From: Botrimarina mediterranea
Lineage (GTDB): Bacteria; Planctomycetota; Planctomycetia; Pirellulales; Lacipirellulaceae
Assembly (NCBI RefSeq): GCF_007753265.1
Contig: NZ_CP036349.1
Span: 4,931,363-4,995,362 of the forward strand
DNA length: 64,000 nucleotides
Direction of reading: 5' to 3'
Below are positions 25,568 through 50,100 of this stretch, one piece after another (position 1 is the stretch's first letter; each line of letters starts with the position of its first letter). Both the position numbers and the translations under genes were made by a program. The notes below the pieces were generated by a model. The model was not told the DNA's origin and ran no database searches. It saw only the letters and a list, made by a program, of their open reading frames with translations.

Positions 25568-25638
25568 AGGGGGTCCTTGCCCGCCCGCCCTAAAACGCCG
25601 ATACTATGTGGCTCGGCTGAAACCAGCCGAGCTGTCCT

Positions 25639-25711
25639 GCCCCGTTCGTCTAGTGGCCCAGGACACCGCCCTCTCACGGCGGAGACAGGGGTTCGACTCC
25701 CCTACGGGGTA
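25639..25711 (+). tRNA. tRNA-Glu (anticodon CUC)
   Basis: The cloverleaf folds by eye. Acceptor gccccgt pairs with acggggt at 25704-25710 (one G-U pair) with discriminator A; D stem gtct/ggac; anticodon stem ccgcc/ggcgg around loop ctctcac, giving anticodon CTC (reads GAG); T stem aggggttcgactcccct. The CCA end is not encoded. Its 3' half overlaps the last codons of the integrase on the other strand, the usual geometry of an integration site. Confidence 0.96.
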
Positions 25712-27005: not shown

Positions 27006-27009
27006 GGGT

Positions 27010-27216
27010 CTACTCCTGACGCTCACGCAGTTCTAAGTGGTAGTGCTCGGCAAGCTTCGCCGCTACGGAGAGCCGTAGCCCTCCCTTTCCCTTGGCGAAT
27101 CGCATCAGTGTCGGGTGCGTAATCCCGGTCGCCTTGGCGATGGCATAGTAACTCGCCGGATCGCCGGCGAGTCTCTCGCGCAGTACATCTTCGATCGTCT
27201 TACGCTTGGCTGACAT
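27010..27216 (-). CDS. Cro/CI-type helix-turn-helix protein
   Basis: A 68-residue DNA-binding protein consisting of one HTH unit (SYYAIAKATGITHPTLMRFAKGKGGLRLSVAAKLAEHYHLEL). It ends 5 bases before the integrase start, and the integrase ribosome site lies inside its 3' end, so the two are co-expressed. It probably controls integrase expression or acts as a recombination directionality factor; the sequence does not decide. Start at MSAKRK is chosen over an upstream in-frame ATG. Confidence 0.8.
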   Translation of the reverse strand: MSAKRKTIEDVLRERLAGDPASYYAIAKATGITHPTLMRFAKGKGGLRLSVAAKLAEHYHLELRERQE

Positions 27217-32140: not shown

Positions 32141-34915
32141 GTGGACCCCGAAGCCCAAGCCCGCCGCAATATCGACCGCCAGCTCGTGGCGGCCGGGTGG
32201 GTCATTCAGGACGCCAAGGCCATCGACCTGTCGGCCGGGCTGGGGATCGCCGTGCGTGAGTTCCCGCTCACCGGCGGGTTCGCGGACTACCTGCTCTACG
32301 TCGACGAGAAGATCGCCGGCGTCATCGAGGCCAAGCCCGAGGGGCACGCCCTCATCGGCGTCGAGCTGCAGTCGGGCAAGTACCTCGCCGGCGTGCCCAA
32401 GCGGCTCCCGGCGTGGGCGTCGCCGCTACCGTTCGCCTACGAGTCGACCGGCGTCGAGACCCGCTTCACCTCGACGCTCGACGCCGTGCCCCGCAGCCGC
32501 GAGGTTTTTACGTTCCACCGGCCCGACGAGCTGCTCCGCCTGCTGCGGCTGGGCCCGGCCGGGCAGGTCCGCACGCGGCTGGCGTCATTGCCGCCGCTGG
32601 TGCCGACGCGGCTCTGGGCGCCGCAGATCGAGGCGATCGAGAACCTCGAAAAGTCGCTCGCCGAGGGCCGCCCCCGCGCCTTGATCCAGATGGCGACCGG
32701 CAGCGGCAAGACCTTCACGGCCTGCTCGTTCTGCTACCGCCTGCTCCGCCACGCCGGCGCGAAGCGGATCCTGTTTCTCGTGGACCGCAACAACCTCGGC
32801 AAGCAGACCGAGAGCGAGTTCCAGAACTACCAGTCGCCCGAGAACCAGTACAAGTTCACCGAGGAGTACCCCGTGCAGCGGCTGAGCGGCTCGGCCGGAG
32901 TCGCCGGGGCCAGCAAGGTCGTGATCAGCACGATCCAGCGGCTCTACGCGACGCTACGCGGCGAGGAGCTCGACGACGAGGCCGACGAGGGATCGCTCTT
33001 CGAGTCGGGCGACGCCACGCTCCGCAAGGAGCCGATGCCGGTCGACTACAAGCCGGGCTTCCCGATCGAGACGTTTGACTTCGTCGTCATCGATGAGTGC
33101 CACCGCAGCATTTACAACCTCTGGCGGCAGGTGCTCGACTACTTCGACGCCTTCCTGATCGGACTCACCGCCACGCCCACCGACCAGACGCTCGGCTTCT
33201 TCCACCGCAACCTGGTCCAGGACTACTCGCACGCCCGCGCGGTCGCCGACGGCGTCAACGTCGGCTACGACGTCTACCGCATCGAGACCCAGATCACCCA
33301 GCAGGGCGCCAAGCTGGCCAAAGAGCCCGGCGTCATGGTGCCGCACCGCAGCCGGCTGACGCGCGAGAAGCGTTACAAGGAGCTCGAGAACGACGTCACC
33401 TACACGGCCAACCAAGTCGGGAAAGACGTCATCAGCGGCGACCAGCTACGCCTGGTCATCAAAACCTTCCGCGACCGGCTCCCCACCGAAATCTTTCCGG
33501 GCCGGACCGAGGTCCCCAAGACGCTCGTCTTCGCCAAGACCGACAACCACGCCGAGGAGCTCGTCGACGTCATCCGCCAGGAGTTCGGCAAGGGGAACGA
33601 GTTCTGCCAGAAGATTACCAGCAAGAGCCATCGCTCGCCCGACGACCTGCTCGCGGAGTTCCGCACCGCCTACTTCCCGCGCATCGCGGTGACGGTCGAC
33701 ATGATCGCCACCGGGACCGACGTCAAACCGCTCGAGTGCCTGCTCTTCATGCGCTCGGTCGGCTCGGGGCCCTACTTCGAGCAGATGAAGGGGCGCGGCT
33801 GCCGCGTGGTCGATCCGGCCGAGCTCAAGCAGGTCACCAGCGACGCGGTGATCAAGGACCGCTTCGTCATCGTCGACGCCGTCGGGGTCTGCGAGCGCGA
33901 CAAGACCGAGTCGTGCCCGCTGGACCGCAAGCCGACCGTCGGCCTCGACAAGGTGCTTGACCTGGCCGGCAAGGGCGTCGCCGACGCCGACCTCGCTAGC
34001 GCGCTGGCCGCCAAGCTGACGCGGCTCGACCGCAAGCTCACCCCCGAGCAGCGGCAGACGATCGAGCAGGCCGCCGGCGGGCAGTCGATCGCCTCGCTGG
34101 CGGCCGACCTGCTCAGCGCGGCCGACGCGGACGCCGCCGCCCAGCAAGCGGCCACCGACCACGCGCTCGCCTCAGCCGAGGAGGCGACCGAAGAGCAGAT
34201 CGCCGCCGCCGAATCGGACCGCGCCCGCGAGGCCCTGCGGCCGTTCCGCAAGACCGAGCTGCGTGACGCCATCCTCGCCACGTCGCGCGTCGCCGACATC
34301 GTCTACGACGAGCAGAACCTCGACGCGCTACTCGGCGCCGGGTTCGACGCGGCCGCACGCGCGAAGGCCGAGGGGCAGCTCGCCGACTTCCGCCAGTACC
34401 TCGAGGAGAACCGCGACCGGCTCGAGGCGCTGCAGATCCTCTACAGCAAGCCCTACCGGGCCGGGCTGCGGCTGCGGCACGTCAAGGAGCTGCGCGAGCA
34501 GTTGCGGGCCGCCCTGAAGCTCGCCGAGCCCGTGCCGCAGCTCTGGCGGCTCTTCGAAGCCGTCGAGCCCGACCGGGTCGCCCGCCGTGAGGGGGACGCC
34601 GTGGTCGATCTGGTGGCCCTGGTGCGTCACGCCCTCGACCGCGCATCGCCGCTCGTGCCGGTGCGGCAGACGATCCACCAGCGTTACGACGCCTGGCTCG
34701 CCCAGTGCGCAGCCGGGGGACGCGTCTTCACGGCCGACCAGCGCCGCTGGCTCGACGCGATCCGCGACCACGTCGCCGAGAGCCTTACGATCGCGCCAGA
34801 CGACCTAGAGTACGTGCCGTTCAACGCGATGGGGGGGCTGGGCGCCGCCCACCGATTGTTCGGCCCCCAGCTGCCGGAGATACTCGCCGAACTCAACACG
34901 GCCCTCGCGGCATAG
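32141..34915 (+). CDS. hsdR: Type I restriction enzyme R subunit
   Basis: The ATP-driven translocase/endonuclease subunit of a type I restriction-modification system. The N-terminal HSDR_N nuclease has the PD-(D/E)XK pattern (GFADYLLY with Asp49; VIEAKPEG with Glu63 and Lys65). Two RecA-like helicase domains follow: Walker A QMATGSGKTF (about 183-192), IDECHRS (DEAH-type box), GLTATP and, in domain 2, IATGTDV and GRGCRV. The C-terminal 300 residues match an EcoEI-type R C-terminal domain. It starts at a GTG, 924 residues, normal length. High GC and codon use fit the host. First gene of the locus, 32 bases before hsdS. Confidence 0.95.
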   Translation: MDPEAQARRNIDRQLVAAGWVIQDAKAIDLSAGLGIAVREFPLTGGFADYLLYVDEKIAGVIEAKPEGHALIGVELQSGKYLAGVPKRLPAWASPLPFAYESTGVETRFTSTLDAVPRSREVFTFHRPDELLRLLRLGPAGQVRTRLASLPPLVPTRLWAPQIEAIENLEKSLAEGRPRALIQMATGSGKTFTACSFCYRLLRHAGAKRILFLVDRNNLGKQTESEFQNYQSPENQYKFTEEYPVQRLSGSAGVAGASKVVISTIQRLYATLRGEELDDEADEGSLFESGDATLRKEPMPVDYKPGFPIETFDFVVIDECHRSIYNLWRQVLDYFDAFLIGLTATPTDQTLGFFHRNLVQDYSHARAVADGVNVGYDVYRIETQITQQGAKLAKEPGVMVPHRSRLTREKRYKELENDVTYTANQVGKDVISGDQLRLVIKTFRDRLPTEIFPGRTEVPKTLVFAKTDNHAEELVDVIRQEFGKGNEFCQKITSKSHRSPDDLLAEFRTAYFPRIAVTVDMIATGTDVKPLECLLFMRSVGSGPYFEQMKGRGCRVVDPAELKQVTSDAVIKDRFVIVDAVGVCERDKTESCPLDRKPTVGLDKVLDLAGKGVADADLASALAAKLTRLDRKLTPEQRQTIEQAAGGQSIASLAADLLSAADADAAAQQAATDHALASAEEATEEQIAAAESDRAREALRPFRKTELRDAILATSRVADIVYDEQNLDALLGAGFDAAARAKAEGQLADFRQYLEENRDRLEALQILYSKPYRAGLRLRHVKELREQLRAALKLAEPVPQLWRLFEAVEPDRVARREGDAVVDLVALVRHALDRASPLVPVRQTIHQRYDAWLAQCAAGGRVFTADQRRWLDAIRDHVAESLTIAPDDLEYVPFNAMGGLGAAHRLFGPQLPEILAELNTALAA

Positions 34916-34947
34916 TCGCATAGCGCTGAAGCGGTCTGTAATCATAA

Positions 34948-37434
34948 ATGTCTGATTTCGATGATGTCCCTCGAGGCTGGTCCACAGCTCTTATCGGTGA
35001 GATCACGACAACGCAAACGGGCGGCACACCCAGTAGAAGCAACGCCTCTTACTTTGGCGGATCTATCCCCTGGGTGAAGTCAGGTGAACTCGGGGATAGC
35101 GTTGTTCGGAGCACCCAAGAATCTATCACTGACCTAGGGCTTGCAGCATCCAACGCGAAAGTTGTCCCTGCCGGCACACTTTGTATTGCTCTGTACGGAG
35201 CAACAGTTGGTCGCCTCGGAATCCTTGGGATCGACGCAAGTACAAATCAAGCCGTATGTGCAATCCCGGTTCCATCGGGATTCGACACGCGGTTTGCGTA
35301 TTACTACCTCTTCTCTAAGCGTGCTGAGCTCGTCGCCCAAGGAAAGGGCGGAGCGCAATCGAATATCAGCAACGGGCTTGTCCGGTCTGTAGCCATTCCA
35401 GTTCCTCCGACGAACGAGCAACGCCGCATCGTCGCGAAGCTCGAAGAGCTGTTCTCGCGGCTGGAGGCGGGGGTGGCGGCTTTGGAGGGGGCGCGGGCCA
35501 AGCTGCGGCGGCTGCGGGCCAGCGTGCTGAAGTCGGCCGTCGAGGGCCGGCTCACCGCCGACTGGCGCGCCGAGCACAAGGACATCGAGCCCGCCAGCGA
35601 ACTGCTCGAGCGGATCCTCGTCGAGCGCCGCGAGCGCCAGCTCGCCGCCCAGCTCGACAAGTGGCGCGCCCGCAAAGCGAAGGCCGGCTGGACCGCCGAG
35701 CGGATCGCCGCGGCCGAGCCCGCGGAGCGGACGAAGCTCGCCGCGAAGTACCAGGAGCCGAAGGGGCCCGCGACCGACGATCTGCCGGAACTGCCGGCGA
35801 CGTGGTGCTGGGCGACGGTTGAAGCCATATGCGACGTGTTTACGGGCACGACGCCTAACCGTGGTACCGCCAGGTTCTACGAGAACGGCAGCATTCCATG
35901 GATAACAAGCACCGCGGTAAATCACGACTTCGTCGATAAAGAAACCGAGTTCGTCACGGAAGCGGCAACTTTGGAAACAAGGTTGGCTCTCTATCCCGCC
36001 GGCACTTTGCTGATTGCGTTGTATGGCGAAGGAAAGACTCGCGGGATGGTTACCGAGCTTCGAATTGATGCAACTATCAACCAAGCGTTGGCGGCCTTGT
36101 GTTTCCCGCGCAATCAGACTGGCCTCCGCGACTATTCAAAGGTCTTCCTCAAAGCGAACTACGCTTCACTAAGGCGCAAGGCTGCAGGCGGAATGCAGCC
36201 CAACTTGAACCTTAGCCTTGTCAATGCAATCGCCGTCGCTGTACCGCCGCTCGCCGAACAAGCCGAGATCGTCCGTCGCGTTGACGAGCAGCTCAGCCGG
36301 ATCGACGCGGCCGAGAAGGTGATCGACACGGGGCTCGCCCGCGCGAAGCGGCTGCGGCAGGCGATCCTCAAGCGGGCCTTCGCGGGGCGCCTCGTCCCGC
36401 AAGACCCCCGCGACGAACCCGCCAGCATGCTGCTGGAGCGGATCCGCGCCGAACGCGCGGCCGCGGCGGCGAGCAACGGGAAAACGACCCGCGCATCCAT
36501 CAAGAACGGAACCGGGGGCGGGGACGCCCCGGCTCGCAAGGGAACCAAGAAGGAGGCCACCCGCGTCGCCGCCGTCGCGAAATCGACGCCCCCAACGGAA
36601 TCCGCAATCCGCAATCCCCAATCCGCAATCGCCCCCAAGCAGCTCTCGCTGTTGGGGGACGAGCCGGAAGCCGCGCACGCGATCGACGCCGAGCAGATCG
36701 CCGCCGCGTTCCAGCGTTCCCACGACGGGTACTCGACCGACTACGTCCTCGCCTCGCCCGAGGCCAACGCCCGCTTCCTCGACGCGGCCGCGTCGCTCGG
36801 CGTCGACGCGCCCGCCGTGGCGATCAACAAGCACCTGCTGATTGTCCGCAAGACACAAAAGGGCCTGCTGCCCAAGACGTCGCGGCGTTACCGCAACCCG
36901 GCGGACCTCGACCCCTTCGAGTTTGTCGCCGAGTGGGCGGTCCGCATCGTGCAGCGGAAGGTCAAGAAAGAGCTGGGCCGCGAGCCGTCGCTCGACACGC
37001 TGCTCTGCGACCCGGAGCTCGCCAAGCGCTTCGACGAGATTGCCGCGAAGCTCAAGGCGTTGGACGGCAAACGGCTGCCGTACCGCTGGTTCGCCCTCGC
37101 ACTGCGGAAGCGGAAGCACAGCGACGCCGGCGGTCTCGTGGCCGAGTTCGCCGAGCCGCTGCCGCTGGAAGAAGCCGTCGCCAAGGCGCCCAAGGGCCCC
37201 GGCGTCTATCAGGTGCTCGCCGGCGACCGCCCTCTGTACGTCGCCGCGGCCGACGACGTGCGGAAGCAACTCCTCGTCCACGGCCTCACCACCGGCGACG
37301 CTCAGCGCGTGGTGCCCGCCTGGGAAGCCCGCAAGCCGCAAACCGTGGCCCTGCTCGCGAGCCGCCAGCGGGCGGACGAGCTGGCGTCGGCCGCGCGGAG
37401 CACGCTGCGCCCGCAACTGAATCTCGTCCTCTAA
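34948..37434 (+). CDS. hsdS: Type I specificity subunit HsdS with long C-terminal extension (degenerate GIY-YIG-like)
   Basis: It sets the DNA target of the system. Two target-recognition domains (about 1-155 and 285-430; GGTPSRSNASYFGGSIPWV and GTTPNRGTARFYENGSIPWI) are each followed by a conserved coiled coil (EQRRIVAKLEELFSRLEAG, EQAEIVRRVDEQLSRIDAA). Ordinary HsdS ends near residue 490; this one has 828. A linker (about 490-575) contains a peptide from a dispersed repeat (SAIRNPQSAI). Then come an unassigned helical domain (about 578-740) and a C-terminal part resembling a GIY-YIG fold: GVY at 752-754, YVA at 764-766, VRK after it, and DELASAARSTLRPQLNL at the end, parallel to the family's E...RPxxN. 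Key glycine and likely some catalytic residues are changed. Target-recognition parts are AT-richer than the rest. Confidence 0.9.
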   Translation: MSDFDDVPRGWSTALIGEITTTQTGGTPSRSNASYFGGSIPWVKSGELGDSVVRSTQESITDLGLAASNAKVVPAGTLCIALYGATVGRLGILGIDASTNQAVCAIPVPSGFDTRFAYYYLFSKRAELVAQGKGGAQSNISNGLVRSVAIPVPPTNEQRRIVAKLEELFSRLEAGVAALEGARAKLRRLRASVLKSAVEGRLTADWRAEHKDIEPASELLERILVERRERQLAAQLDKWRARKAKAGWTAERIAAAEPAERTKLAAKYQEPKGPATDDLPELPATWCWATVEAICDVFTGTTPNRGTARFYENGSIPWITSTAVNHDFVDKETEFVTEAATLETRLALYPAGTLLIALYGEGKTRGMVTELRIDATINQALAALCFPRNQTGLRDYSKVFLKANYASLRRKAAGGMQPNLNLSLVNAIAVAVPPLAEQAEIVRRVDEQLSRIDAAEKVIDTGLARAKRLRQAILKRAFAGRLVPQDPRDEPASMLLERIRAERAAAAASNGKTTRASIKNGTGGGDAPARKGTKKEATRVAAVAKSTPPTESAIRNPQSAIAPKQLSLLGDEPEAAHAIDAEQIAAAFQRSHDGYSTDYVLASPEANARFLDAAASLGVDAPAVAINKHLLIVRKTQKGLLPKTSRRYRNPADLDPFEFVAEWAVRIVQRKVKKELGREPSLDTLLCDPELAKRFDEIAAKLKALDGKRLPYRWFALALRKRKHSDAGGLVAEFAEPLPLEEAVAKAPKGPGVYQVLAGDRPLYVAAADDVRKQLLVHGLTTGDAQRVVPAWEARKPQTVALLASRQRADELASAARSTLRPQLNLVL
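36599..36630 (+). repeat. aatccgcaatcc repeat inside hsdS
   Basis: Three tandem units (aatccgc, aatccgc, aatccccaatccgc) read in frame as SAIRNPQSAI in the linker between the HsdS core and its C-terminal extension. The same unit is intergenic at 9287-9324 and 25485-25567. Confidence 0.85.
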
Positions 37435-37447
37435 TAAGCTCCTCGCC

Positions 37448-38473
37448 ATGCTCCGCATCGACCGCGCCCAGCAATCGCTCTCGACGCTCGCGACGCCCTC
37501 CTTCGCCGGCGCGTCGATCACCGAGCGCTACGACTTACAGGAATTCATCGCCAACAGTCCCGAGGCGTTCTTCGGAGAAGTCGGTGAGCGACTGTTCGTC
37601 ATCGGCAAAGAGATCGTGCCGTCAAAGAATGTGATGGACCGCGTTGACCTGCTTTGTGTCGACCAAGAAGGCGCCACCGTCATCGTTGAGCTGAAGCGGG
37701 GCAATCACAAGTTGCATTTGCTGCAAGCAATTTCGTATGCGGGGATGCTCGCGGAGTGGTCGGCCGACGACGTCCTCGAGCGCCTCAACGAGGACCAGCA
37801 GGAGGCTCTTGCCGAGTTTCTCGACGTCGAGGTTTCATTGCTCAACCGATCGCAGCGGATCATGTTGATCGCCGAGGGCTACGATTACGCGCTGCTGGTG
37901 GCGACCGAGTGGCTGAACGAGCAGTTCGGCGTTCCGATTACTTGCTGCCGCGTCGGCATGGCGACGGACGCCGCTTCGAACGCGGAGTATCTGGTCTGCT
38001 CGACGGTGTACCCCGCCCCGGAGCTGGCGCAACAAGCCGCGCCGCGAGGCCGCCAAGCGATCGAGCGCCGCAGCGGTGGCAAATGGGCGAGTTGGGAGGA
38101 TGCCTTGGCGTCGACGGAGAATCCCATCGCCGAGGCGTTCTATCGAAAGCAACTGGACGACGGTCGGGAGAACCGACTGCGTTACAGGCTGTTGAGATTC
38201 CGTGTGCACGGGAAGCGGCGGTTCGTCACCGAGCTTCGTCGCATTGGCGCCACCGCCGTGCAATTCGGCCGTTTTCCCGGCGACCTCAACTTCTGGCGTG
38301 AGCGCATTAGCGATCCACAGTCGTTGGCGACCCGTGTCCAAGACAGCGAGGTGCGGTTTCATCTCCGAACAGAAACCGACTTTGCGACCTTTCTGGATTG
38401 CCTCGACGGCGACTTGCAACGAGTGGACTGGCTTCGAGAGACCATTGAGCTAAGGGAAGACGATGAGCAGTGA
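37448..38473 (+). CDS. PD-(D/E)XK nuclease-like protein (NucS/DUF91-type)
   Basis: A 341-residue protein with a PD-(D/E)XK core: upstream acidic residues (FFGEVGERLFVIGKE), DRVDLLC (Asp67), VIVELKRG (Glu81 and Lys83) and a downstream Gln in LLQAISYAG, the order seen in NucS/DUF91-type endonucleases. The C-terminal 150 residues are an unassigned domain (RYRLLRFRVHGKRRFVTELRRIGATAVQF). It starts 13 bases after hsdS and overlaps the next gene by 11 bases, so it is part of the operon. Probably a DNA nuclease or DNA-end binding partner of the restriction system. Confidence 0.75.
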   Translation: MLRIDRAQQSLSTLATPSFAGASITERYDLQEFIANSPEAFFGEVGERLFVIGKEIVPSKNVMDRVDLLCVDQEGATVIVELKRGNHKLHLLQAISYAGMLAEWSADDVLERLNEDQQEALAEFLDVEVSLLNRSQRIMLIAEGYDYALLVATEWLNEQFGVPITCCRVGMATDAASNAEYLVCSTVYPAPELAQQAAPRGRQAIERRSGGKWASWEDALASTENPIAEAFYRKQLDDGRENRLRYRLLRFRVHGKRRFVTELRRIGATAVQFGRFPGDLNFWRERISDPQSLATRVQDSEVRFHLRTETDFATFLDCLDGDLQRVDWLRETIELREDDEQ

Positions 38474-39473
38474 CGTCATCTGGATGGTCCGCGCCGGCAA
38501 GGGCGCCCAGTGGATCGACGACTTTCTCGACGACGGGATGGTCGCCATTCATTTTGGGATTGGTGACGTCGCTCCCGACCTTGAGAAGCCGAAGATTTTG
38601 GAGTTGCTGCATCAGGCTTTTCCCTCCGCCAGCAAGGGGACCACGGCGGTCTGGGCGTCGCAGGTGCGGAGGTTTCAGACGGAGATCAAGGTAGGCGACT
38701 CGGTCGCCACCTACGATCCGACACGCCGGCTCTACTTCTTGGGCGAGATCCGATCGCCGTCTCGCTACGACGCCGAGTCGGGCTGGTCGATCAAGGACGT
38801 CTCGTGGTCGCAGCAAGTCAACCGCGACGCGCTCTCGACCAGCACCCGCAATAGCCTCGGCTCGATTGCAACGCTCTTCACGATCCAGGATTCGGCCGCC
38901 GCGGAGATGCGCCGGAATGCCGGTCCGATCGGCTCCGTACAAGCGGCCGACGTGCCCCTTTCGCCCGACACCGACACGAGCATCGAAGACGAGTCGGTAG
39001 TCTTGCAGGATGTCGGCACCAAGGCTCGTGAGTTCCTCGAAGACCGCATCGCCAAACTCGATTGGGAGCAGATGCAGGAGCTTGTCGCCGAGATCCTGCG
39101 GGCGATGGGATATCGTGCGCGGGTCGCCCCAAAAGGCGCCGATCGGGGAGTCGATATCATCGCCTCCCCGGACGGGCTCGGCCTCCAAGAGCCACGGATC
39201 TTCGTCGAGGTGAAGCATCGGCCCGGCTCGCAGATCAGCGCCGATCAGGTGCGCTCGTTCATCGGCGGACGCCAGACCGGCGACCGCTGCCTCTACGTCA
39301 GCACCGGCGGTTTCTCCAAAGACGCCCGCTACGAGGCGGAGCGCTCGAGCATCCCCCTGACGCTGATCACGCTGCCCGAGCTCCGCGAGCTGCTGACCGA
39401 GTACTACGACAAGTTTACGCCCGCCGGCGCGGCCCTGATCCCGCTCGAGCGGATCTACTGGCCGATCTCCTAA
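38463..39473 (+). CDS. Mrr-type restriction endonuclease with N-terminal recognition-like domain
   Basis: A 336-residue protein. The C-terminal Mrr catalytic domain is clear: YRARVAPKGADRGVDIIA (Asp231), IFVEVKHR (Glu249 and Lys251), QISADQVRSFIGG (Gln262), then LYVSTGGFSKDAR. The N-terminal 100 residues (VIWMVRAGKGAQWIDDFLDDGMVAIHFG, VGDSVATYDPTRRLYFLGEI) resemble the PUA/EVE-like modules that read modified bases in type IV systems. This suggests a modification-dependent nuclease. The start overlaps the previous gene by 11 bases, coupling translation. Confidence 0.8.
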   Translation: MSSDVIWMVRAGKGAQWIDDFLDDGMVAIHFGIGDVAPDLEKPKILELLHQAFPSASKGTTAVWASQVRRFQTEIKVGDSVATYDPTRRLYFLGEIRSPSRYDAESGWSIKDVSWSQQVNRDALSTSTRNSLGSIATLFTIQDSAAAEMRRNAGPIGSVQAADVPLSPDTDTSIEDESVVLQDVGTKAREFLEDRIAKLDWEQMQELVAEILRAMGYRARVAPKGADRGVDIIASPDGLGLQEPRIFVEVKHRPGSQISADQVRSFIGGRQTGDRCLYVSTGGFSKDARYEAERSSIPLTLITLPELRELLTEYYDKFTPAGAALIPLERIYWPIS

Positions 39474-39598
39474 GCCCATTTCAAATCTTTCAAAGCCTCC
39501 CCCAGCCGATTGACGCTGTCGATTTCGGGGATCGCCGCCTCCCCAGCCGACCTGTTTTCCGAGGTTGGGCCCGCCTAATCGGGCATCATGGCATCTGC

Positions 39599-39618
39599 TA
39601 TCCTGGGAGCGATCCCAG
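39599..39618 (+). promoter_or_regulatory. Candidate promoter -10 and leader hairpin before the nucleotidyltransferase gene
   Basis: tatcct at 39599-39604 is followed by a short hairpin (ctggga, GNRA-type loop gcga, tcccag at 39603-39618), 20 bases before the GTG start. The 164-base gap 39474-39637 is the only large gap in the hsd locus, so a second promoter here could drive the nucleotidyltransferase, TIM-barrel and hsdM genes together. Confidence 0.35.
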
Positions 39619-39637
39619 CAGCCCCTGCGAGAGACCC

Positions 39638-40741
39638 GTGGTCAACGACCTCGAATGGAATGAGCCAGAGCCCGCGTCCTTCTATGAGGAAGCCTGCGAC
39701 TGGCTGGGCGAGGGCTTCGCGACGATCGACGCCGCGCGGGTCCGATCGAAGCAGAAGCTGACGGAACTTTCGGCGTGTCTCGAAAGTCAGACCTTCGGCG
39801 AATCGACGGGCTTCATCGCCTTTGGCTCGCTCGCAAGGCTGGAGTTTACCGATGGCAGCGACCTGGACTGGACGCTCCTGGTCAACGGCCCCTCTGACTT
39901 AGGACAGTACGAAACCTCGTTGGCGATCAAGAGAAGTCTGGAAGCGGCGGACTTTACCAAACCAGGTCCGTCCGGATTGTTCGGAGGCGTGTCGAGCAGC
40001 TTTGAGCTGATCCACCAGATTGGTGGCCTCGAAGACACCAACGCCAATATGACCCGACGTCTCCTGCTTCTCCTGGAGTCCGTCGCCGTTGAGGGCGATA
40101 TCGTGCGGCAAGGTGTGCTGCATCAGTTGTTGCAGCGGTATGTCCGCTACGGCCGTAGCGTGGAAGGGAGCAAGGCAGAATCATTGAAGCCGCCACGATT
40201 TCTCCTGAACGATTTTGTCCGGTTCTGGCGGACGATGGCGGTCGACTACGACGCCAAAAAATGGCTAGCTCCCGATGAGAAGTGGGCGCTGCGGAACGCG
40301 AAGCTCCGATTCTCGCGCAAGCTCATCTTCGTAAAGGGGTTGTTGCTCGGCCTCGACTGCCAACTTTCCCCGGATGCTTGGCCGTGGTCGGCGCTGCCAG
40401 CCGATGAGTTCCACGAGGCGCCTGAGGAAAGGCTGCAACAGGGCCTCCAGCGATTGATCGAACTTCCGGCGATCGATTCCGTCTGCCGCACTGCCAAGCT
40501 GGTCAATGCAAGCGATTCTCTCCGCGAGATCCTGCTCGCCTACGATCAGTTCTTGAGCGTGCTTGCGGACGAGTCGTCCCGGGAGCAGCTCAAGACCTTG
40601 CGCTTCGATGAAGCGGAGAAGAACGCGTTGTTCTCCGACCTGCGTGTCGCGGGCAAGAAGTTTGGTAACGCCCTGCAGGATTTGCTATTCCGATCGGACG
40701 ACAAGTTGACTGCTCTGGCAATGGATTACGGAGTCTTCTAA
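39638..40741 (+). CDS. Nucleotidyltransferase-fold protein in the type I locus
   Basis: A 367-residue protein. The nucleotidyltransferase signature is intact: FIAFGSLARLEFTDGSDLDWTLL, with Gly63-Ser64 and Asp75/Asp77 as metal ligands. The rest is helical (LLLLLESVAVEGDIVRQGVLHQLLQRYVRYGRS; FLLNDFVRFWRTMAVDYDAKKW), as in DUF294/GlnD-type or antitoxin-type nucleotidyltransferases. It could transfer a nucleotide to protein, RNA or a small molecule; the target is unknown. It starts at a GTG. Its stop TAA overlaps the next ATG (TAATG), so it is translated with the TIM-barrel gene. Confidence 0.7.
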   Translation: MVNDLEWNEPEPASFYEEACDWLGEGFATIDAARVRSKQKLTELSACLESQTFGESTGFIAFGSLARLEFTDGSDLDWTLLVNGPSDLGQYETSLAIKRSLEAADFTKPGPSGLFGGVSSSFELIHQIGGLEDTNANMTRRLLLLLESVAVEGDIVRQGVLHQLLQRYVRYGRSVEGSKAESLKPPRFLLNDFVRFWRTMAVDYDAKKWLAPDEKWALRNAKLRFSRKLIFVKGLLLGLDCQLSPDAWPWSALPADEFHEAPEERLQQGLQRLIELPAIDSVCRTAKLVNASDSLREILLAYDQFLSVLADESSREQLKTLRFDEAEKNALFSDLRVAGKKFGNALQDLLFRSDDKLTALAMDYGVF

Positions 40742-41478
40742 TGGAACGGATATTCGGTTTCTCGACGGGCGCTCTGGCGTTCGGTGATTTCGCCCGCGGC
40801 ATCGAGCTGCAGGACCGCGATGGCGTCAGCGCGATAGAGCTCTCGGCGCTGCGTGCGCATGAGCTAGCGGGAGCGATTGCGGCCCTCCCACTCCTGGAGA
40901 ACGCGCGTTTCAAGTATCGCTCGTTCCACGCGCCGAGCGATTTCGGCGGGATGAGCGATCGCGAGATTGTCGATCGGCTCCGCCTGGTAGCGGAGAAGGG
41001 ATACCCGATCATCCTCCATCCCGATGCGATCACCGATTACCAGCCTTGGAAGGAGTTGGATGAGCTTCTTCTGCTGGAGAACATGGATTCGCGGAAGAGG
41101 GACTTCCGCACCGCGCGAGAAATGCTGAACTGCTTCAAAGAGTTGCCAAATGCGAGGTTGTGCTTCGACATCGGACACGCCCGTCAGATCGACCCCACGA
41201 TGGGCGTCGCGATCGACCTGTTGGCACGCTACCGGACGCGAATTGCTGAGGTCCATTTGAGCGAGGTCGATTGGACCTGCCATCATGTGCCGATCAGCAC
41301 CTCCGCCGCTCTGGCGTTCCAGCGAGTGGCCAGTCGCATTCCCGCCGAAATCCCTGTCATCATCGAATCCGTCGTGAAGCCGGAGGCCATCGACGCCGAG
41401 CTCGTGATGGCCCAGCGTTGCCTCGATCCGGAAGACAACCTCCTGTCCCGTCCTTCGGTCCAGACCATGGCGGTTTGA
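40741..41478 (+). CDS. TIM-barrel protein (xylose isomerase/AP endonuclease 2-like)
   Basis: A 245-residue (beta/alpha)8 barrel. The pattern of metal ligands is that of sugar-phosphate isomerase/AP endonuclease family 2: His63 (SFHAPS), His93 (ILHPD), Glu113 (LLENMD), Asp143 and His146 (CFDIGHAR), His172 (EVHLSEVD), His181/182 and Glu209 (VIIESVV). It could be a phosphodiesterase or isomerase acting on the product of the preceding nucleotidyltransferase. It is sandwiched by TAATG and TGATG overlaps between that gene and hsdM, the strongest sign that these three products are needed together. Confidence 0.75.
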   Translation: MERIFGFSTGALAFGDFARGIELQDRDGVSAIELSALRAHELAGAIAALPLLENARFKYRSFHAPSDFGGMSDREIVDRLRLVAEKGYPIILHPDAITDYQPWKELDELLLLENMDSRKRDFRTAREMLNCFKELPNARLCFDIGHARQIDPTMGVAIDLLARYRTRIAEVHLSEVDWTCHHVPISTSAALAFQRVASRIPAEIPVIIESVVKPEAIDAELVMAQRCLDPEDNLLSRPSVQTMAV

Positions 41479-42974
41479 TGAGCGGCAACCCGACCCAGCA
41501 GATCGTCAACAAGGCGTGGAGCTTCGCCCACGTGCTGCGCGACGACGGTCTGTCGTACATGGCCTACACCGAGCAGATCACGTTTCTGCTCTTCCTGAAG
41601 ATGGCCCACGAGCAGTCGCAGCCCCCCTACAACCGGCCGGCGCTGGTGGAGGCCGAGCTCGACTGGGCCAGCTTGCTCGCCCGCGACGGCGAGGAGCTCG
41701 AGACCCACTACCGCCATATCCTCAACACGCTGGCCAACCGCACCGGGATGATCGGCGAGGTCTTCAAGCGGGCCCGGCCGGAAATCCAGAACCCCGCGAC
41801 CCTCAAGAAGCTGATCGTCGACCTGATCGAGCCGGTCGAGTGGATGGCGATGCAGGCCGACGTGAAGGGGGATATCTACGAGGGCCTCCTCTCCAAGAGC
41901 GCCACCGAGAGCAGCAAGGGCGCCGGGCAGTACTTCACGCCGCGCGAGCTGATCCGGGCGATCGTCGACGTCATGCAGCCGCACCACAGCGATCGGGTGT
42001 GCGACCCGGCGTGCGGCACGGGCGGATTTTTGCTGTCGGCGTACCAGTACGTCACCGACAAGCACTCCGCGGAGATGGACAGCGACGAGAAGAAGCGGCT
42101 GAGCCGCGACTTCGCCCACGGGTCAGAGCTCGTCCCCGCGACGGCGCGGCTCGCCATCATGAACCTCTACCTCCACGGCATCGCCGCCGACCCCTGCCCG
42201 ATCGCCTCGGGCGCCGACAGCCTCGCCAAGCACCCGGGCGAGCGCTACGACCTGGTCCTCACCAATCCGCCCTTCGGCAAGAAGAGCTCGATCTCGATCG
42301 TCGGCGAAGACGGCGACCTCGAGAAGGAAGAGACGGCCTACGAGCGGCAGGATTTTTGGACGACCACCAAGAACAAGCAGCTCAACTTCGTGCAGCACGT
42401 CCGCACGCTGCTCAACGACCGGGGCCGCTGCGCGATCGTCGTCCCCGACAACGTCCTCTTCGAGGGAGGCGCCGGCGAGACGATCCGCCGTAACCTGCTG
42501 CGGCAGTTCGACGTCCACACCCTGTTGCGGCTGCCGACGGGCATCTTCTACGCCCAGGGCGTGAAGGCCAACGTCCTCTTCTTCGACGCCAAGCCGGGCC
42601 GCGAGAAGCCCTGGACGGACCGGCTGTGGGTCTACGACCTGCGGACGAACAAGCACTTCACGCTCAAGACCAACCCCCTGAAACGGGCGGACCTCGACGA
42701 GTTCGTCGCCTGCTACCAGCCGGGCGAGCCCTACGCCAAGCGCGAGGCGACCTGGAGCGAAGACAACCCCGAGGGCCGCTGGCGGTCCTACGACTTCGAG
42801 GAGATCGACCGCCGCGACAAGGCGAACCTCGACATCTTCTGGCTCCGCGACAAAAGCCTCGAGGACAGCGAAGACCTGCCCGAGCCGGACGAGCTAGCGC
42901 GGGAGATCGCCGACGACCTGCAGACAGCGCTGGAGGAGTTCGCGGCGATCGCGAGCGAGCTTGAGAGCAAGTAG
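41478..42974 (+). CDS. hsdM: Type I DNA adenine methyltransferase M subunit
   Basis: The N6-adenine methylase of the system. An N-terminal helical domain (NKAWSFAHVLRDDGLSYMAYTEQITFLLFLKM) is followed by the methyltransferase core with AdoMet motif DPACGTGGF and catalytic motif LTNPPFG, then LNFVQHVRTLL and IVVPDNVLF. The 498-residue length is standard. Its ATG overlaps the TIM-barrel stop (TGATG). It is last in the locus, separated from hsdR and hsdS by four genes, an unusual order because hsdM normally adjoins hsdS. Confidence 0.95.
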   Translation: MSGNPTQQIVNKAWSFAHVLRDDGLSYMAYTEQITFLLFLKMAHEQSQPPYNRPALVEAELDWASLLARDGEELETHYRHILNTLANRTGMIGEVFKRARPEIQNPATLKKLIVDLIEPVEWMAMQADVKGDIYEGLLSKSATESSKGAGQYFTPRELIRAIVDVMQPHHSDRVCDPACGTGGFLLSAYQYVTDKHSAEMDSDEKKRLSRDFAHGSELVPATARLAIMNLYLHGIAADPCPIASGADSLAKHPGERYDLVLTNPPFGKKSSISIVGEDGDLEKEETAYERQDFWTTTKNKQLNFVQHVRTLLNDRGRCAIVVPDNVLFEGGAGETIRRNLLRQFDVHTLLRLPTGIFYAQGVKANVLFFDAKPGREKPWTDRLWVYDLRTNKHFTLKTNPLKRADLDEFVACYQPGEPYAKREATWSEDNPEGRWRSYDFEEIDRRDKANLDIFWLRDKSLEDSEDLPEPDELAREIADDLQTALEEFAAIASELESK

Positions 42975-47143: not shown

Positions 47144-50100
47144 ATGAATCCCAACGATGCCCGTGGAAGTCGAAGGGTAAGGCGAACCCGAAAGTTGGGA
47201 AGCTCCCGCCGTTGGTCACTTGGACCGGCGCGGCTTGGCAGGAAGCCCCTCCTTGAGCTGTTGGAGGACCGTCGCCTCCTGGCCGCGGACTTCGGCGACG
47301 CCCCGGCGCCCTACCCGACGCTGATGGCCGTCAACGGGGCTCAGCACGCGGAAGTCAGTCCGGGCGGGCTGCAACTCGGCGCCGCGATCAGCTTCGAAGC
47401 GGAGGGCCAACCCTCAGCCTCCGCCAACGCCGACAGCGGCGATGACGGCATCGACTTCGGCATGGTGCGAGTTGGTCAGCTCGACGCCGAGGTGACCGTC
47501 ACTGTCACCAATGCGCCGGCCGCGGCGAAGCTCGACGGCTGGATCGACTTCAACGGCGACGGCTCGTGGGGCGGCGCTGATGAACGTGTCTTTGCCAGCA
47601 TCGACGTCGCCGAGGGCGTCAACCTGTTGACGTTCGACGTGCCGAGCGCGGCGATGTCGGGGGAGACCTACGCGCGGTTCCGGCTGAGCACGGCGGGGGG
47701 GCTGGGCGTGACGGGTTTGGCAGCGGATGGGGAGGTAGAAGACTTCGTAGTCTTCATCGCACCGCCTACGGAACGTACCGCAGCATTTGCAGACCACGGG
47801 GTTATCGCTACCGACCCCTTCAGAATTACGAAGTTCATCACGACGGATTTAGACGACGATGGTGATAGCGATCTGATTGTCTACGCGACCAATTCAAGCT
47901 CGCCTTTCGAAGACACACTCGCATGGTACAGCAATGACGGCGACCAAGCGTTTCAACGGAGAGTGATTGCGACGAGGGATGGATTCAACCCGACTAGTAT
48001 CCGAGCTGCTGACATAGACAATGATGGCGATCAAGATCTCCTCGTTAGTTACCCCGACAGCAATCTCACCGGCGATGTTTACTGGTACAGAAACGATGGT
48101 TCCGAGAACTTCTCGAGTCATCGAATCGCGAGCGGGAGTTACGCCTCTGACGCCGCCCTCGGTGACATCGATGGCGATGGCGACCTGGACCTCGTAACGG
48201 GAGGTCTCAAGTGGTACGCAAATGACGGACAAGGAATATTTTCCTACCAGGCGGCTGTCCCCAGCACGCTTCAGAATGATTCTCGGGTTAACCTTGCCGA
48301 CCTCGACCAAGACGGCGACCTCGATATCGTTGTCGGGTCTTACTTTGGGGACTTCGTCTGGTTCGAGAACAACGGTCTTCAACAATTCACACAGCGGAGC
48401 ATTGCCAACAAGCCGGGTTACAGCCCATTCCCAATCGCTATCGACATGGACGGGGACGGCGACCTCGACGTCTTCCCGCAGGAAGACAAGGCGGACGGGC
48501 TCGAATGGTATCAGAACAGCGGCGCCGGGACGTTTACGAAAGTCATTGTTGACAGCGAAACTGTGTCGCTGCGCGACCATCGCGCCGCAGATTTCGACGG
48601 CGACGGCGACATTGATATTGTCTCTTCCCATGTGGACGGTTCACTCGTTTTATACGAGCGCCAAGGCCAGGGTTACGTGAGGAGAACTCTCGGCGTCGCC
48701 ACGAGCGATATCGCAGTTGTCGATCTGGACCGTGACGGTGACCTCGATGTTCTGACGTTACTGACGGGCAGTGTTCGAGACCTTGTCTGGTTTGAGAACC
48801 GACTCGCCGTGCACCTCGGCGCGTCGACGCCGACCGCAGCCGAAGAGACCAGCGAGATTGTTTCTTTCGACTTCTTCGTTGACGCGCCCCACTCCGAATC
48901 GCTTCTGCTCGCGTTCCGCGTGGAAGGGACAGCGCGTGTGGGTAGCGATTTTACGCTCTCTGGGTACGAGAGCTTTGACGGCGCCGAGGGAACGGTCCTA
49001 CTCCCAGCGGGACAGACGTCCGTGTCGTTGCTCGCCACGCTGACCGATGACGCTTCGGCGGAGGTCGACGAGTCGATCGTCGTCACCCTTCTTTCGACGC
49101 CCAGTTACGCGCCGAGCGATGTATCGAACGCGGTCACTCAAATTCTAAGTAGTGAAGTTGGCGCCGATTTCGGCGACGCGCCGGGGCCCTACCCGACCCT
49201 GCTTGCCGAGAATGGCGCTAGGCACAGCAATATCGGGCCCGGCGAACTGCAACTAGGTGGAGCGGCGAGCTACGAAGCCGACGGACTACCCTCGGCAGCC
49301 GCCGACGCCGACCTCAACGACGACGGCGTCGTTTTCGGCGAATTCCGAGTAGGGCAGAACGGCGCGACGGTTGAGATTACGGTCACGAACGCACCGAATG
49401 GCGCGAAGCTCGACGGCTGGATCGACTTCAACGCCGATGGCTCGTGGGGGGGGCTGAACGAGCGACTCTTCACCGCAGTTGGTGTGACCGAGGGCGTCAA
49501 CTTGCTGACTTTCAACGTGCCGGGCTGGGCCGTCTCCGGCGTCACCTACGCACGTTTCCGCCTCAGCACGGCTGGCGGGCTGCCCACGACTGGCTTCGCT
49601 GCCGACGGTGAAGTCGAAGACTACGCGGTGATGATCGAGCCCACACAATCCTATTCGACCGCATTCGGGACCGCGAATGCCATCAGGGAGACGACGGGCG
49701 CCTTTATCAGCGTCACTACTCTGGACATCGAGGGAGATGGAGACGTTGACATTGTTGCAACCACATCCGGCAGTGGGGCTATCACTCTTTTCGAAAACGA
49801 CGGGGCGAACGCGTTCACCAGCCGCAGTCTCTTCAGCACGAGTTCTACCAAGATCACATCCGTCGAAGCGGCCGACATCGACGGTGACGGCGACACCGAC
49901 ATTGTCGCGTTGCCGGAGGACGGTTGGGTCCTTATCCTTGAGAACGATGGCTCGGGAACGTTTTCTTGGTACTCCCTCCGCCCAAGTTCGACCTCGCCAG
50001 GCGATCTGTCGCCCGTGGACATGGACGGTGATGGCGACATCGACCTCGTCGTTTCGTCGCGTGACAGCGACCGCATCGCTTGGTACGAGAACCGCGGCGA

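What the first reader, a model, noticed from the sequence alone, without database searches (positions are those of the whole stretch)
32141..42974. Expanded type I restriction locus with four genes between hsdS and hsdM
Seen: order hsdR, hsdS, PD-(D/E)XK gene, Mrr-type gene, nucleotidyltransferase, TIM-barrel, hsdM, all on one strand with overlaps (11 bases, TAATG, TGATG). Known: hsdS and hsdM normally adjoin. Inference: a composite defence system in which the nucleotidyltransferase and TIM-barrel enzyme make or remove a modification that regulates or complements restriction.
Basis: partly seen in the sequence, partly recalled or inferred. Interest (0 to 1): 0.82.

Follow-up and report, generated by a model that had tools for sequence, protein, structure and literature searches.

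The report
Enzyme pair inside a restriction operon
A bacterial DNA-restriction operon carries extra genes in the middle, among them a portable two-enzyme unit (one enzyme that probably attaches a nucleotide to a target, one that may remove it) already listed as a candidate antiviral system but with no known mechanism.

Summary
In detail: an intact type I restriction-modification operon (hsdR-hsdS-...-hsdM) with four genes between hsdS and hsdM. The chain is not unbroken: 164 nt separate the Mrr gene from the nucleotidyltransferase. The four genes match three catalogued PADLOC candidates (PDC-S11, PDC-S02, the pair PDC-M70A/B). In relatives of this operon the hsdS-hsdM gap carries inserts in 8 of 16 loci; the pair is in none of 20 fetched. 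The pair recurs as a two-gene unit in 71 of 79 fetched TIM-barrel loci, once as a natural fusion. By the window's profiles it adjoins hsdM in none of them; type I hsdR lies within 10 kb in 3, and 1 is inside a BREX operon. In 8 of 12 chosen comparisons only the two genes align between genomes. So it looks like mobile cargo, not a restriction component. Models put the nucleotidyltransferase on the whole-chain fold of glutamine-synthetase adenylyltransferase (Z 14) and the TIM barrel near sugar epimerases and endonuclease IV, with 8 of 9 endonuclease IV metal ligands. Best reading: a nucleotide writer and a metallo-phosphodiesterase eraser, acting as a toxin/antidote-like unit. Target unknown; defence unproven: its neighbourhood was not clearly richer in defence genes than a control.

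The parts
32141..34915 (+). hsdR, type I restriction subunit (924 aa): helicase motor, EcoEI_R_C domain, nuclease-type EAK motif
   Evidence: Pfam ResIII 5.5e-38, EcoEI_R_C 9e-32; PADLOC REase_I 5.7e-40; motifs GSGKT, DECH, EAK
34948..37434 (+). hsdS, specificity subunit (828 aa) with two target-recognition domains in residues 1-530
   Evidence: Pfam Methylase_S, two stretches, 2.1e-31; PADLOC Specificity_I 1.6e-94 over 6-531
36535..37434 (+). C-terminal extension of HsdS (about 300 aa), similar to C-terminal parts of other planctomycete proteins whose N-termini look (by eye) like DNA methyltransferases
   Evidence: no Pfam family over cut-off; matches in 7 of 199 genomes, own included; partners read
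37448..38473 (+). PD-(D/E)XK nuclease-like protein (341 aa), PADLOC candidate PDC-S11; cargo
   Evidence: PDC-S11 1.6e-27; D-x(n)-ELK motif; 53.7% identical over 328 residues to a PDC-S11 protein at the end of a BREX operon
38463..39473 (+). Mrr-type restriction endonuclease (336 aa), PADLOC candidate PDC-S02; cargo
   Evidence: Mrr_cat 1.3e-24; PDC-S02 5.6e-75
39638..40741 (+). nucleotidyltransferase (367 aa, GTG start), PADLOC PDC-M70A; whole-chain fold resemblance to GlnE/DrrA adenylyltransferases; cargo
   Evidence: PDC-M70A 2e-117; GX11DXD in 32 of 32 aligned sequences; model pLDDT 90.9, Z 14.0-15.0 to GlnE and DrrA
40741..41478 (+). TIM-barrel protein (245 aa), PADLOC PDC-M70B; endonuclease-IV-like metal site (8 of 9 ligands); cargo
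   Evidence: PDC-M70B 7.8e-94; model pLDDT 95.2, Z up to 20.3 to UlaE and 17.5-18.3 to endonuclease IV; ligand comparison
41478..42974 (+). hsdM, N6-adenine DNA methyltransferase subunit (498 aa)
   Evidence: N6_Mtase 1.6e-65; PADLOC MTase_I 4.6e-182; NPPF and DPACGTGG motifs

Best explanation
This is a complete type I restriction-modification operon whose hsdS-hsdM gap is an insertion slot. Three separate cargo units sit in it: a PD-(D/E)XK nuclease (PDC-S11), an Mrr-type nuclease (PDC-S02), and the two-gene unit PDC-M70 (nucleotidyltransferase plus TIM barrel). Shown by calls: motifs present, cargo slot in relatives, recurrence and mobility of the pair, natural fusion, fold resemblances, conserved active-site residues. 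Inferred: the cargo shares the operon's transcription but takes no part in restriction or methylation; the nucleotidyltransferase is a GlnE/DrrA-type adenylyltransferase that puts AMP (or another NMP) on a target needed for growth or phage development; the TIM barrel is a metal-dependent phosphodiesterase of the endonuclease IV/CbiR kind that takes the nucleotide off again. Together they would form a reversible-modification toxin/antidote or emergency-stop unit, which fires when the eraser or the linked R-M/BREX system is disturbed. The closest working precedents are DarTG embedded in type I R-M, and PrrC in EcoprrI.
For: Cargo slot: in relatives of this R-M operon hsdS and hsdM lie within 52 nt or overlap in 8 of 16 loci, and 8 of 16 carry 0.8-2.9 kb between them, including PDC-S28 and HEC-01AB. 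Pairing: nucleotidyltransferase found with the TIM gene in 71 of 79 loci, 41 of 71 overlapping by 1 or 4 nt; single-ORF fusion in L044 (M70A 5e-122, M70B 1e-95); distance matrices correlate r 0.79, permutation maximum 0.13 (not corrected for shared ancestry). Mobility: in 8 of 12 chosen comparisons only the two genes align (e.g. Rhizobium vs Ancylobacter, 79% over 1,878 nt of 20 kb); both genes on two conjugative plasmids. Both conserved: dN/dS about 0.08-0.18 in 8 comparisons (ratios from the dN and dS; dS near or above 1, so rough). Writer: Z 15.0 DrrA, 14.1 and 14.0 GlnE over 261-264 residues, next 8.2; GX11DXD in 32 of 32, the motif PMC7641770 gives for adenylyltransferase-type AMPylators (passages). 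Eraser: 8 of the 9 invariant Nfo positions that I take as metal ligands have an invariant counterpart in 32 of 32 M70B; six of the eight are also paired by hhalign; CbiR of the same superfamily cleaves the lower-ligand phosphodiester of cobamides (PMC7733943 passages). Relatives of the nucleotidyltransferase without a TIM partner overlap or adjoin other phosphohydrolases: HD domain (L152), histidine phosphatase (L153 and a Rhizobium plasmid). Precedents: a seven-gene island with DarTG2 inside type I R-M gives phage protection (PMC12255303 passages); PrrC inside EcoprrI (PMC3874165 passage).
Against: No activity, substrate or toxicity is shown. The nucleotidyltransferase model is mostly helical, and the aligner's own note warns that Z under about 13 can be chance for such models, so Z 14-15 at 11-12% identity is only modestly above that line; Foldseek alone gave E 5e-4 (DrrA) and 3.5e-3 (GlnE). 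By sequence neither enzyme joins the named families: no Pfam GlnE hit, AP_endonuc_2 28.4 bits against a cut-off of 31.1, hhalign to Nfo 1.5% and to GlnE 14% probability. Fold neighbours of the TIM barrel are led by sugar epimerases, so isomerase chemistry is not excluded. The ninth endonuclease IV ligand (Asp) is missing, and the weak hhalign pairs H63 with Nfo's second ligand His, not the first as I do by strand order. Defence: neighbouring genes hit PADLOC models about as often as control genes (about 15 or more of 240 vs at most 8 of 117), and many copies sit, by eye, among housekeeping genes. Of 7 TIM-less relatives only 2 overlap a phosphohydrolase gene (neighbours scanned in 5 of 7). One plasmid TIM relative (Miltoncostaea, 31%) has no nucleotidyltransferase that tblastn detects. 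The Rhizobium plasmid copy lies among glycosyltransferases and transporters, which hints at metabolism.
Confidence: 0.4

Rival explanations
1. Type VII-like toxin-antitoxin in the opposite sense: the TIM barrel is a nuclease toxin and the nucleotidyltransferase is the antitoxin that silences it by adding AMP, as MntA does to HepT.
For: Two overlapping genes and a fusion; endonuclease-IV-like metal site; MntA/HepT antitoxins are the next fold neighbours (Z 8.2); MntA works this way on a tyrosine (PMC7641770 passages).
Against: No tyrosine is invariant in the TIM proteins: the best columns hold Tyr in 23 and 11 of 32 rows. Serine and threonine acceptors are not excluded (S8, S35, S174 invariant). 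The whole-chain match is to GlnE/DrrA, not to minimal MNT proteins.
Confidence: 0.2
2. The pair is not a defence unit: it is a small-molecule or regulatory enzyme pair (nucleotidyl transfer plus phosphodiester or sugar-phosphate chemistry) that was carried into this operon by chance.
For: Many of the 79 copies lie, by eye, beside housekeeping genes; no clear excess of defence neighbours over control; epimerases lead the TIM fold list; a related nucleotidyltransferase with histidine phosphatase sits among glycosyltransferases and transporters.
Against: Patchy: the pair's own nucleotidyltransferase subfamily (E 1.7e-116 or better) was found in 3 of 392 same-phylum genomes, against the habit of core metabolism. 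Can move as an isolated two-gene unit. Sits inside two unrelated defence operons (window; L079/G238, counted as one).
Confidence: 0.25
3. One reading: a composite restriction system in which the pair adds or removes a modification that regulates or complements restriction.
For: Gene order and tight coupling TIM-hsdM (TGATG); both embedded copies adjoin the methyltransferase gene, hsdM here and pglX in BREX.
Against: By the window's hsdM profile 0 of 79 other loci have the pair next to hsdM. 0 of 20 fetched relatives of this R-M operon contain it. The R-M genes look complete without it.
Confidence: 0.08
4. Signal pathway: the nucleotidyltransferase makes a nucleotide messenger and the TIM enzyme degrades or senses it.
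For: Nucleotidyltransferase superfamily; HalB of the Hailong system appears low in the fold list (Z 5.9).
Against: Top fold matches are protein AMPylators, far above HalB. No recurrent third gene that could be an effector: the largest other neighbour cluster spans 5 of 79 loci (first, rough gene calls).
Confidence: 0.07

Closest known systems
PDC-M70 (PADLOC-DB 2.0.0 candidate, models PDLC04778/PDLC04779)
   Same: Both proteins match their models over nearly full length (2e-117, 7.8e-94), adjacent genes
   Different: The catalogue gives no description or mechanism in the call output; the term PDC-M70 occurs in 0 papers of the held library
DarTG2 embedded in a type I R-M operon (E. coli RRDM island)
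   Same: A two-gene unit inside a type I R-M operon; toxin that writes a modification and partner that erases it (embedding seen in passages of PMC12255303; DarTG chemistry recalled)
   Different: Inserted between hsdS and hsdR, ADP-ribosyl chemistry on DNA (recalled); no sequence relation shown here
PrrC in EcoprrI
   Same: A gene embedded in a type I operon that acts when phage counters restriction (PMC3874165 passage)
   Different: Single anticodon nuclease, invariably linked to type Ic R-M (PMC2610378 passage); M70 is mostly unlinked to R-M in the loci seen
GlnE (GS-ATase) and DrrA-type AMPylators
   Same: Whole-chain fold resemblance, Z 14-15; GX11DXD motif
   Different: No sequence-family match; partner and target differ. 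The window's genome has its own GlnE
Endonuclease IV / CbiR (AP endonuclease 2 superfamily)
   Same: Barrel and 8 of 9 metal ligands
   Different: One ligand missing, below the Pfam cut-off; the window's genome has its own Nfo
MntA/HepT (type VII TA)
   Same: Two-gene nucleotidyltransferase module
   Different: Partner is a TIM barrel, not HEPN; no invariant tyrosine acceptor

Membership tests
Type I restriction-modification system | HsdR with helicase motor and nuclease motif | tested here: met
   the separate HSDR_N model is below its cut-off (14.4 vs 25.1 bits)
Type I restriction-modification system | HsdM N6-adenine methyltransferase with NPPF | tested here: met
Type I restriction-modification system | HsdS with two recognition domains | tested here: met
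   two Methylase_S stretches
Type I restriction-modification system | ATP-dependent restriction and methylation of a bipartite site | not testable with these tools
   needs methylome data and phage plating
PDC-M70 candidate | M70A and M70B as adjacent genes | tested here: met
   PADLOC's own system rules (distances, thresholds) were not run
PDC-M70 candidate | protects against phage | not testable with these tools
   no paper of the held library names PDC-M70 (one search)
GlnE/DrrA-type AMPylase | G-x11-D-x-D active-site motif | tested here: met
   32 of 32 sequences
GlnE/DrrA-type AMPylase | two-domain fold over the whole chain | tested here: met
   Z 14.0-15.0, 261-264 residues aligned, rmsd 4.4-4.7; helical model, so only modestly above the tool's caution line of about 13
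GlnE/DrrA-type AMPylase | sequence-profile membership (PF03710) | tested here: not met
   no hit at E 0.1; hhalign 14%
GlnE/DrrA-type AMPylase | AMP transfer to a protein | not testable with these tools
   needs enzyme assay
Endonuclease IV | nine metal ligands | tested here: not met
   8 of 9; the Asp before the last His is absent. Which of the 11 invariant H/D/E of eight Nfo proteins are ligands is recalled; two of the eight matches rest on strand order against the weak hhalign
Endonuclease IV | TIM barrel of the AP endonuclease 2 type | tested here: met
   Z 17.5-18.3 to endonuclease IV, up to 20.3 to UlaE
Endonuclease IV | curated family score (PF01261) | tested here: not met
   28.4 bits, cut-off 31.1
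Type VII TA (MntA/HepT) | HEPN toxin partner | tested here: not met
   partner is a TIM barrel
Type VII TA (MntA/HepT) | conserved tyrosine acceptor on the partner | tested here: not met
   no invariant Tyr in 32 TIM proteins
PrrC-like R-M-guarded toxin | gene embedded in a type I operon | tested here: met
PrrC-like R-M-guarded toxin | toxin silenced by the R-M complex | not testable with these tools
   mostly unlinked to R-M in the loci seen, which argues against strict dependence

The most novel reading that the evidence does not exclude
PDC-M70 is a reversible-nucleotidylation toxin/antidote of a kind not yet described: a GlnE-type adenylyltransferase as toxin and an endonuclease-IV-type TIM-barrel metallo-phosphodiesterase as an antidote that removes the modification. 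It is a portable two-gene unit plugged independently into type I R-M and BREX operons, with sister nucleotidyltransferases that use other erasers (HD domain, histidine phosphatase).
Probability: 0.3. Interest if true: 0.75.

Novelty: new member of a known kind. Interest (0 to 1): 0.45.

Why it matters
It shows that this gene order is not a new kind of restriction enzyme but a type I operon used as a landing site for candidate defence units. It also gives a concrete, testable chemistry for one of many catalogued but unexplained candidates. If the writer/eraser reading is right, it adds nucleotidylation with an enzymatic eraser to the few toxin/antidote pairs that work by reversing a modification.

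Tried and rejected
Composite restriction system: rejected as the main reading because the pair is absent from 20 of 20 fetched relatives of this R-M operon and, by the window's hsdM profile, adjoins hsdM in 0 of 79 other loci. MntA-type silencing of the TIM protein: lowered by the lack of an invariant tyrosine. Defence-island enrichment: I expected it and did not find it clearly. Within two called genes on either side of the pair, 240 proteins of 72 loci gave about 15 PADLOC-matching proteins at E <= 1e-20 (my count from family names; the second table showed 25 of 66 families, so this is a lower bound), against at most 8 of 117 control proteins. The 'mad3' model was left out on both sides (3 members in each of the three batches). 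Left out of the 240: five loci already seen to have defence genes (L047, L075, L079, L081, L104), whose inclusion would raise the rate to roughly 10% by my guess; L089 (no neighbour long enough); and L109 (no TIM gene called). The control used 18 of 20 fetched planctomycete regions, because the residue limit cut off the last two; it differs in phylum mix from the 79 loci.

Relatives: the 79 loci were found with a profile of three TIM proteins that all have the nucleotidyltransferase beside them, and only the best 80 of 83 matches were kept, so 71 of 79 describes this TIM subfamily. A single-sequence scan of genome contigs with the nucleotidyltransferase found nothing. IMG/VR viral contigs (TIM alignment) and phage records (nucleotidyltransferase) gave no relative. 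E. coli genomes were not searched. The PDB sequence search found no relative of the TIM protein at E 0.1. Nucleotidyltransferase hits shorter than 75 residues (E 2.6e-6 to 1e-3) were dropped as fragments; 10 of 392 genomes had matches over 200 residues. Searching Planctomycetota with the histidine-phosphatase-linked and the HD-linked relative brought no locus beyond those in hand. For the R-M relatives I took 20 of the 21 best-scoring other genomes; G011, split over two contigs, was left out.

Island ends: an integrase adjoins tRNA-Glu, but no repeat of 13 nt or more between 25620-25900 and the rest of the window was found, so the far end of the island is not located. hhalign to Nfo and GlnE profiles was too weak to decide; the ligand match rests on strand order and motif context, with six of eight positions also paired by hhalign.

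Full report
What is there. Family searches identify an intact type I system: HsdR (ResIII 5.5e-38, EcoEI_R_C 9e-32), HsdS (two Methylase_S stretches) and HsdM (N6_Mtase 1.6e-65), with motor, nuclease-type and methyltransferase motifs present. The overlaps quoted are real, but 164 nt lie between the Mrr gene and the nucleotidyltransferase, whose likely start is GTG at 39638.

What the four inserted genes are. PADLOC models name all four: the PD-(D/E)XK gene is PDC-S11 (1.6e-27), the Mrr gene PDC-S02 (5.6e-75), the nucleotidyltransferase PDC-M70A (2e-117), the TIM barrel PDC-M70B (7.8e-94). PDC means phage defence candidate, found by 'guilt-by-embedding' and for the most part not experimentally validated (PMC10855318 and PMC12988326, passages; neither passage names M70). 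The original study is not held here; I recall it as Payne and colleagues on defences embedded within immune systems and did not read it. So genes of this kind sitting inside an immune operon is the very observation by which such candidates were listed. 'PDC-M70' occurs in no paper of the library.

The slot. I fetched 20 loci of the closest same-phylum relatives of the window's HsdM (37 of 294 genomes match, own included). In 16 both hsdS and hsdM could be placed: they lie within 52 nt or overlap in 8, and in 8 there are 829 to 2,937 nt between them. Inserts include a PDC-S28 helicase (L134), HEC-01A/B (L136), a DpdB-like gene (L142), and in L131 and L138 a PIN-type gene next to a protein of 316-323 residues (homologous between the two loci, 30-33% identity). 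None of the 20 has the nucleotidyltransferase or TIM gene in the stretch fetched. The gap is thus a recurrent insertion place; the window's insert, about 4.0 kb with four genes, is larger than any of those eight.

The pair elsewhere. A profile of three TIM proteins found 79 loci in genomes of other organisms, mostly Acidobacteriota and Planctomycetota, some Alphaproteobacteria and others. A nucleotidyltransferase gene is present with the TIM gene in 71 of 79, 29 of 71 overlapping by one base and 12 of 71 by four. In L044 (Acidobacteriaceae bacterium KBS 96) one 599-residue reading frame holds both. Pairwise distances of the two proteins correlate (r 0.79 over 56 rows; 1,000 permutations reached at most 0.13), although shared ancestry was not removed. 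No third gene recurs: the next most frequent neighbour cluster spans 5 of 79 loci (with rough gene calls).

Link to R-M and other defence. Type I hsdR genes lie within 10 kb in 3 of 79 loci (L047, L075, L081). In none is the pair next to a gene that the window's hsdM profile finds, apart from pglX in L079. In that one (L079, whose pair is identical to that of genome G238) it is embedded in a BREX operon, in the order BrxC, 268-aa gene, PglX, nucleotidyltransferase, TIM, PglZ, BrxL, PDC-S11. That PDC-S11 protein is 53.7% identical to the window's, so PDC-S11 and PDC-M70 occur together in two unrelated defence operons. Other neighbours include DISARM DrmMI (L104), Druantia DruE2 (L081), a retron-type phosphoribosyltransferase (L070), LmuA (L090), GajA (L099), bSEFIR (L101), DarG (L103) and DarT (L107). 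Yet a control of 117 genes from 18 arbitrary planctomycete regions gave PADLOC hits at a similar rate. I therefore do not claim that the pair is enriched near defence genes. Only 41 of 78 loci hold 5 kb or more on both sides, so all neighbour counts are lower bounds.

Mobility. In 12 comparisons of loci that I chose, only the pair aligned in 8. Examples are Rhizobium against Ancylobacter (1,878 nt at 79%, nothing else in 20 kb) and two Gimesia loci (1,736 nt at 80%). One of the 8 (L064/L067) has little flank to compare. Flanks also aligned in the other 4. The pair is on two conjugative rhizobial plasmids, once two genes from an AbiEii-type toxin gene and once near SIR2 and ATP-binding genes. 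On a quick tree of 56 pairs, the five rows I labelled as R-M/BREX-linked (window, L075, L079, G238, L087) need four changes, so association with such operons arose repeatedly (the label of L087 rests on a weak REase_III-type hit). dN/dS was about 0.08-0.18 in 8 gene comparisons (dS near or above saturation): both genes are under purifying selection.

Folds and active sites. The nucleotidyltransferase model (pLDDT 90.9) matches DrrA (Z 15.0) and both halves of GlnE (Z 14.1, 14.0) over 261-264 residues; the next match is Z 8.2. The model is mostly helical and the aligner's note sets a caution line of about Z 13 for such models; what speaks for a true match is that three related AMPylators stand alone at the top over the whole chain. 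DrrA and GlnE are protein AMPylators of the adenylyltransferase class with GX11DXD (PMC7641770 passages), and that spacing is present in 32 of 32 family members. The TIM model (pLDDT 95.2) matches UlaE (Z 20.3), ketose 3-epimerases and endonuclease IV (Z 17.5-18.3). Eight planctomycete Nfo proteins have 11 invariant H, D or E; nine of them correspond to the known metal ligands (numbering recalled): H67, H107, E144, D178, H181, H215, D228, H230 and E260 in the window genome's own Nfo. The TIM family has invariant H63, H93, E113, D143, H146, H172, H182 and E209; only D228 lacks a counterpart. A low-probability hhalign pairs the last six the same way but H63 with H107; I place H63 and H93 by the strand they follow in the model (Nfo strand positions recalled). 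From recall, sugar epimerases lack the first two histidines. This points to phosphoester chemistry, as in CbiR, a phosphodiester-cleaving enzyme of the same superfamily (PMC7733943 passages), but the fold list alone would not exclude an isomerase.

Mechanism. Two enzymes with conserved active sites, fused once and inherited together, one adding a nucleotide and the other probably cutting a phosphodiester, fit a writer and an eraser. Two more distant nucleotidyltransferase relatives without a TIM partner overlap an HD-domain gene (L152) or a histidine-phosphatase gene (L153), and one on a Rhizobium plasmid is followed by a histidine phosphatase. These are different phosphohydrolase folds in the same partner role, reminiscent of GlnD, where (recalled) an HD domain removes what the nucleotidyltransferase adds. 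The other five of the seven TIM-less loci examined show no such partner; neighbours were scanned in three of those five. Inside an R-M or BREX operon such a unit would be a second line, like DarTG2 in the E. coli RRDM island (PMC12255303 passages) or PrrC in EcoprrI (PMC3874165 passage). Target, trigger and toxicity are unknown.

Comparison and novelty. The locus is an ordinary type I R-M operon loaded with catalogued candidate cargo: a new member of a known kind. The BREX survey PMC12839542 lists HNH, HKD, PD-(D/E)XK, HEPN, Schlafen and PIN auxiliary effectors; 'xylose isomerase' and 'endonuclease IV' do not occur in its main text (passages and term counts only).

Counts of neighbour loci (72, not 73), the caution on helical Z-scores, the hhalign disagreement over H63, and the profile limits on 'next to hsdM' were added. 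None of these required a change of odds.

Noticed in passing
window 36535-37434: HsdS carries a C-terminal extension of about 300 residues, similar to the C-termini of 549-699-residue planctomycete proteins that begin (by eye) like DNA methyltransferases; one is in the same genome (G000:C1:4895103).
   Followed up: partly
window 25639-27026: An integrase-like gene on the minus strand (25674-27026, by eye) adjoins and overlaps tRNA-Glu (25639-25712); this suggests the R-M locus is part of an integrated island, but no att repeat of 13 nt or more was found in the window.
   Followed up: partly
L131 10976-12402 and L138 1723-3135: A recurring cargo pair in the hsdS-hsdM gap: a protein of 316-323 residues with no PADLOC match (and no Pfam match for the L138 copy) next to a PIN-domain protein.
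   Followed up: partly
L075 2941-4026: A SoFic-type gene lies between hsdR and hsdM of a type I operon (Elusimicrobia) that also neighbours the nucleotidyltransferase/TIM pair; another AMPylase-class gene (recalled) in an R-M slot.
   Followed up: partly
L150 2638-3678 and window 37448-38473: PDC-S11 and PDC-M70 occur together both in this type I operon and in a Gimesia-type BREX operon.
   Followed up: yes
L103 231-1304 and L107 6180-6755: DarG and DarT genes lie beside the pair, or the TIM gene alone, on two contigs of one acidobacterial assembly.
   Followed up: no
L152 8209-10325, L153 1463-3213, L219 3950-5645: Relatives of the nucleotidyltransferase are paired with an HD-domain or histidine-phosphatase gene instead of the TIM barrel.
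   Followed up: partly
L220 711-1706: A 4.5-kb E. coli plasmid carries a relative of the nucleotidyltransferase; no TIM gene was seen by eye among its ORFs.
   Followed up: partly
window 47144-55063: A very large protein (2,639 aa) with many repeated DGDGD-type stretches follows a sensor-kinase-like gene (by eye) downstream of the R-M locus.
   Followed up: no
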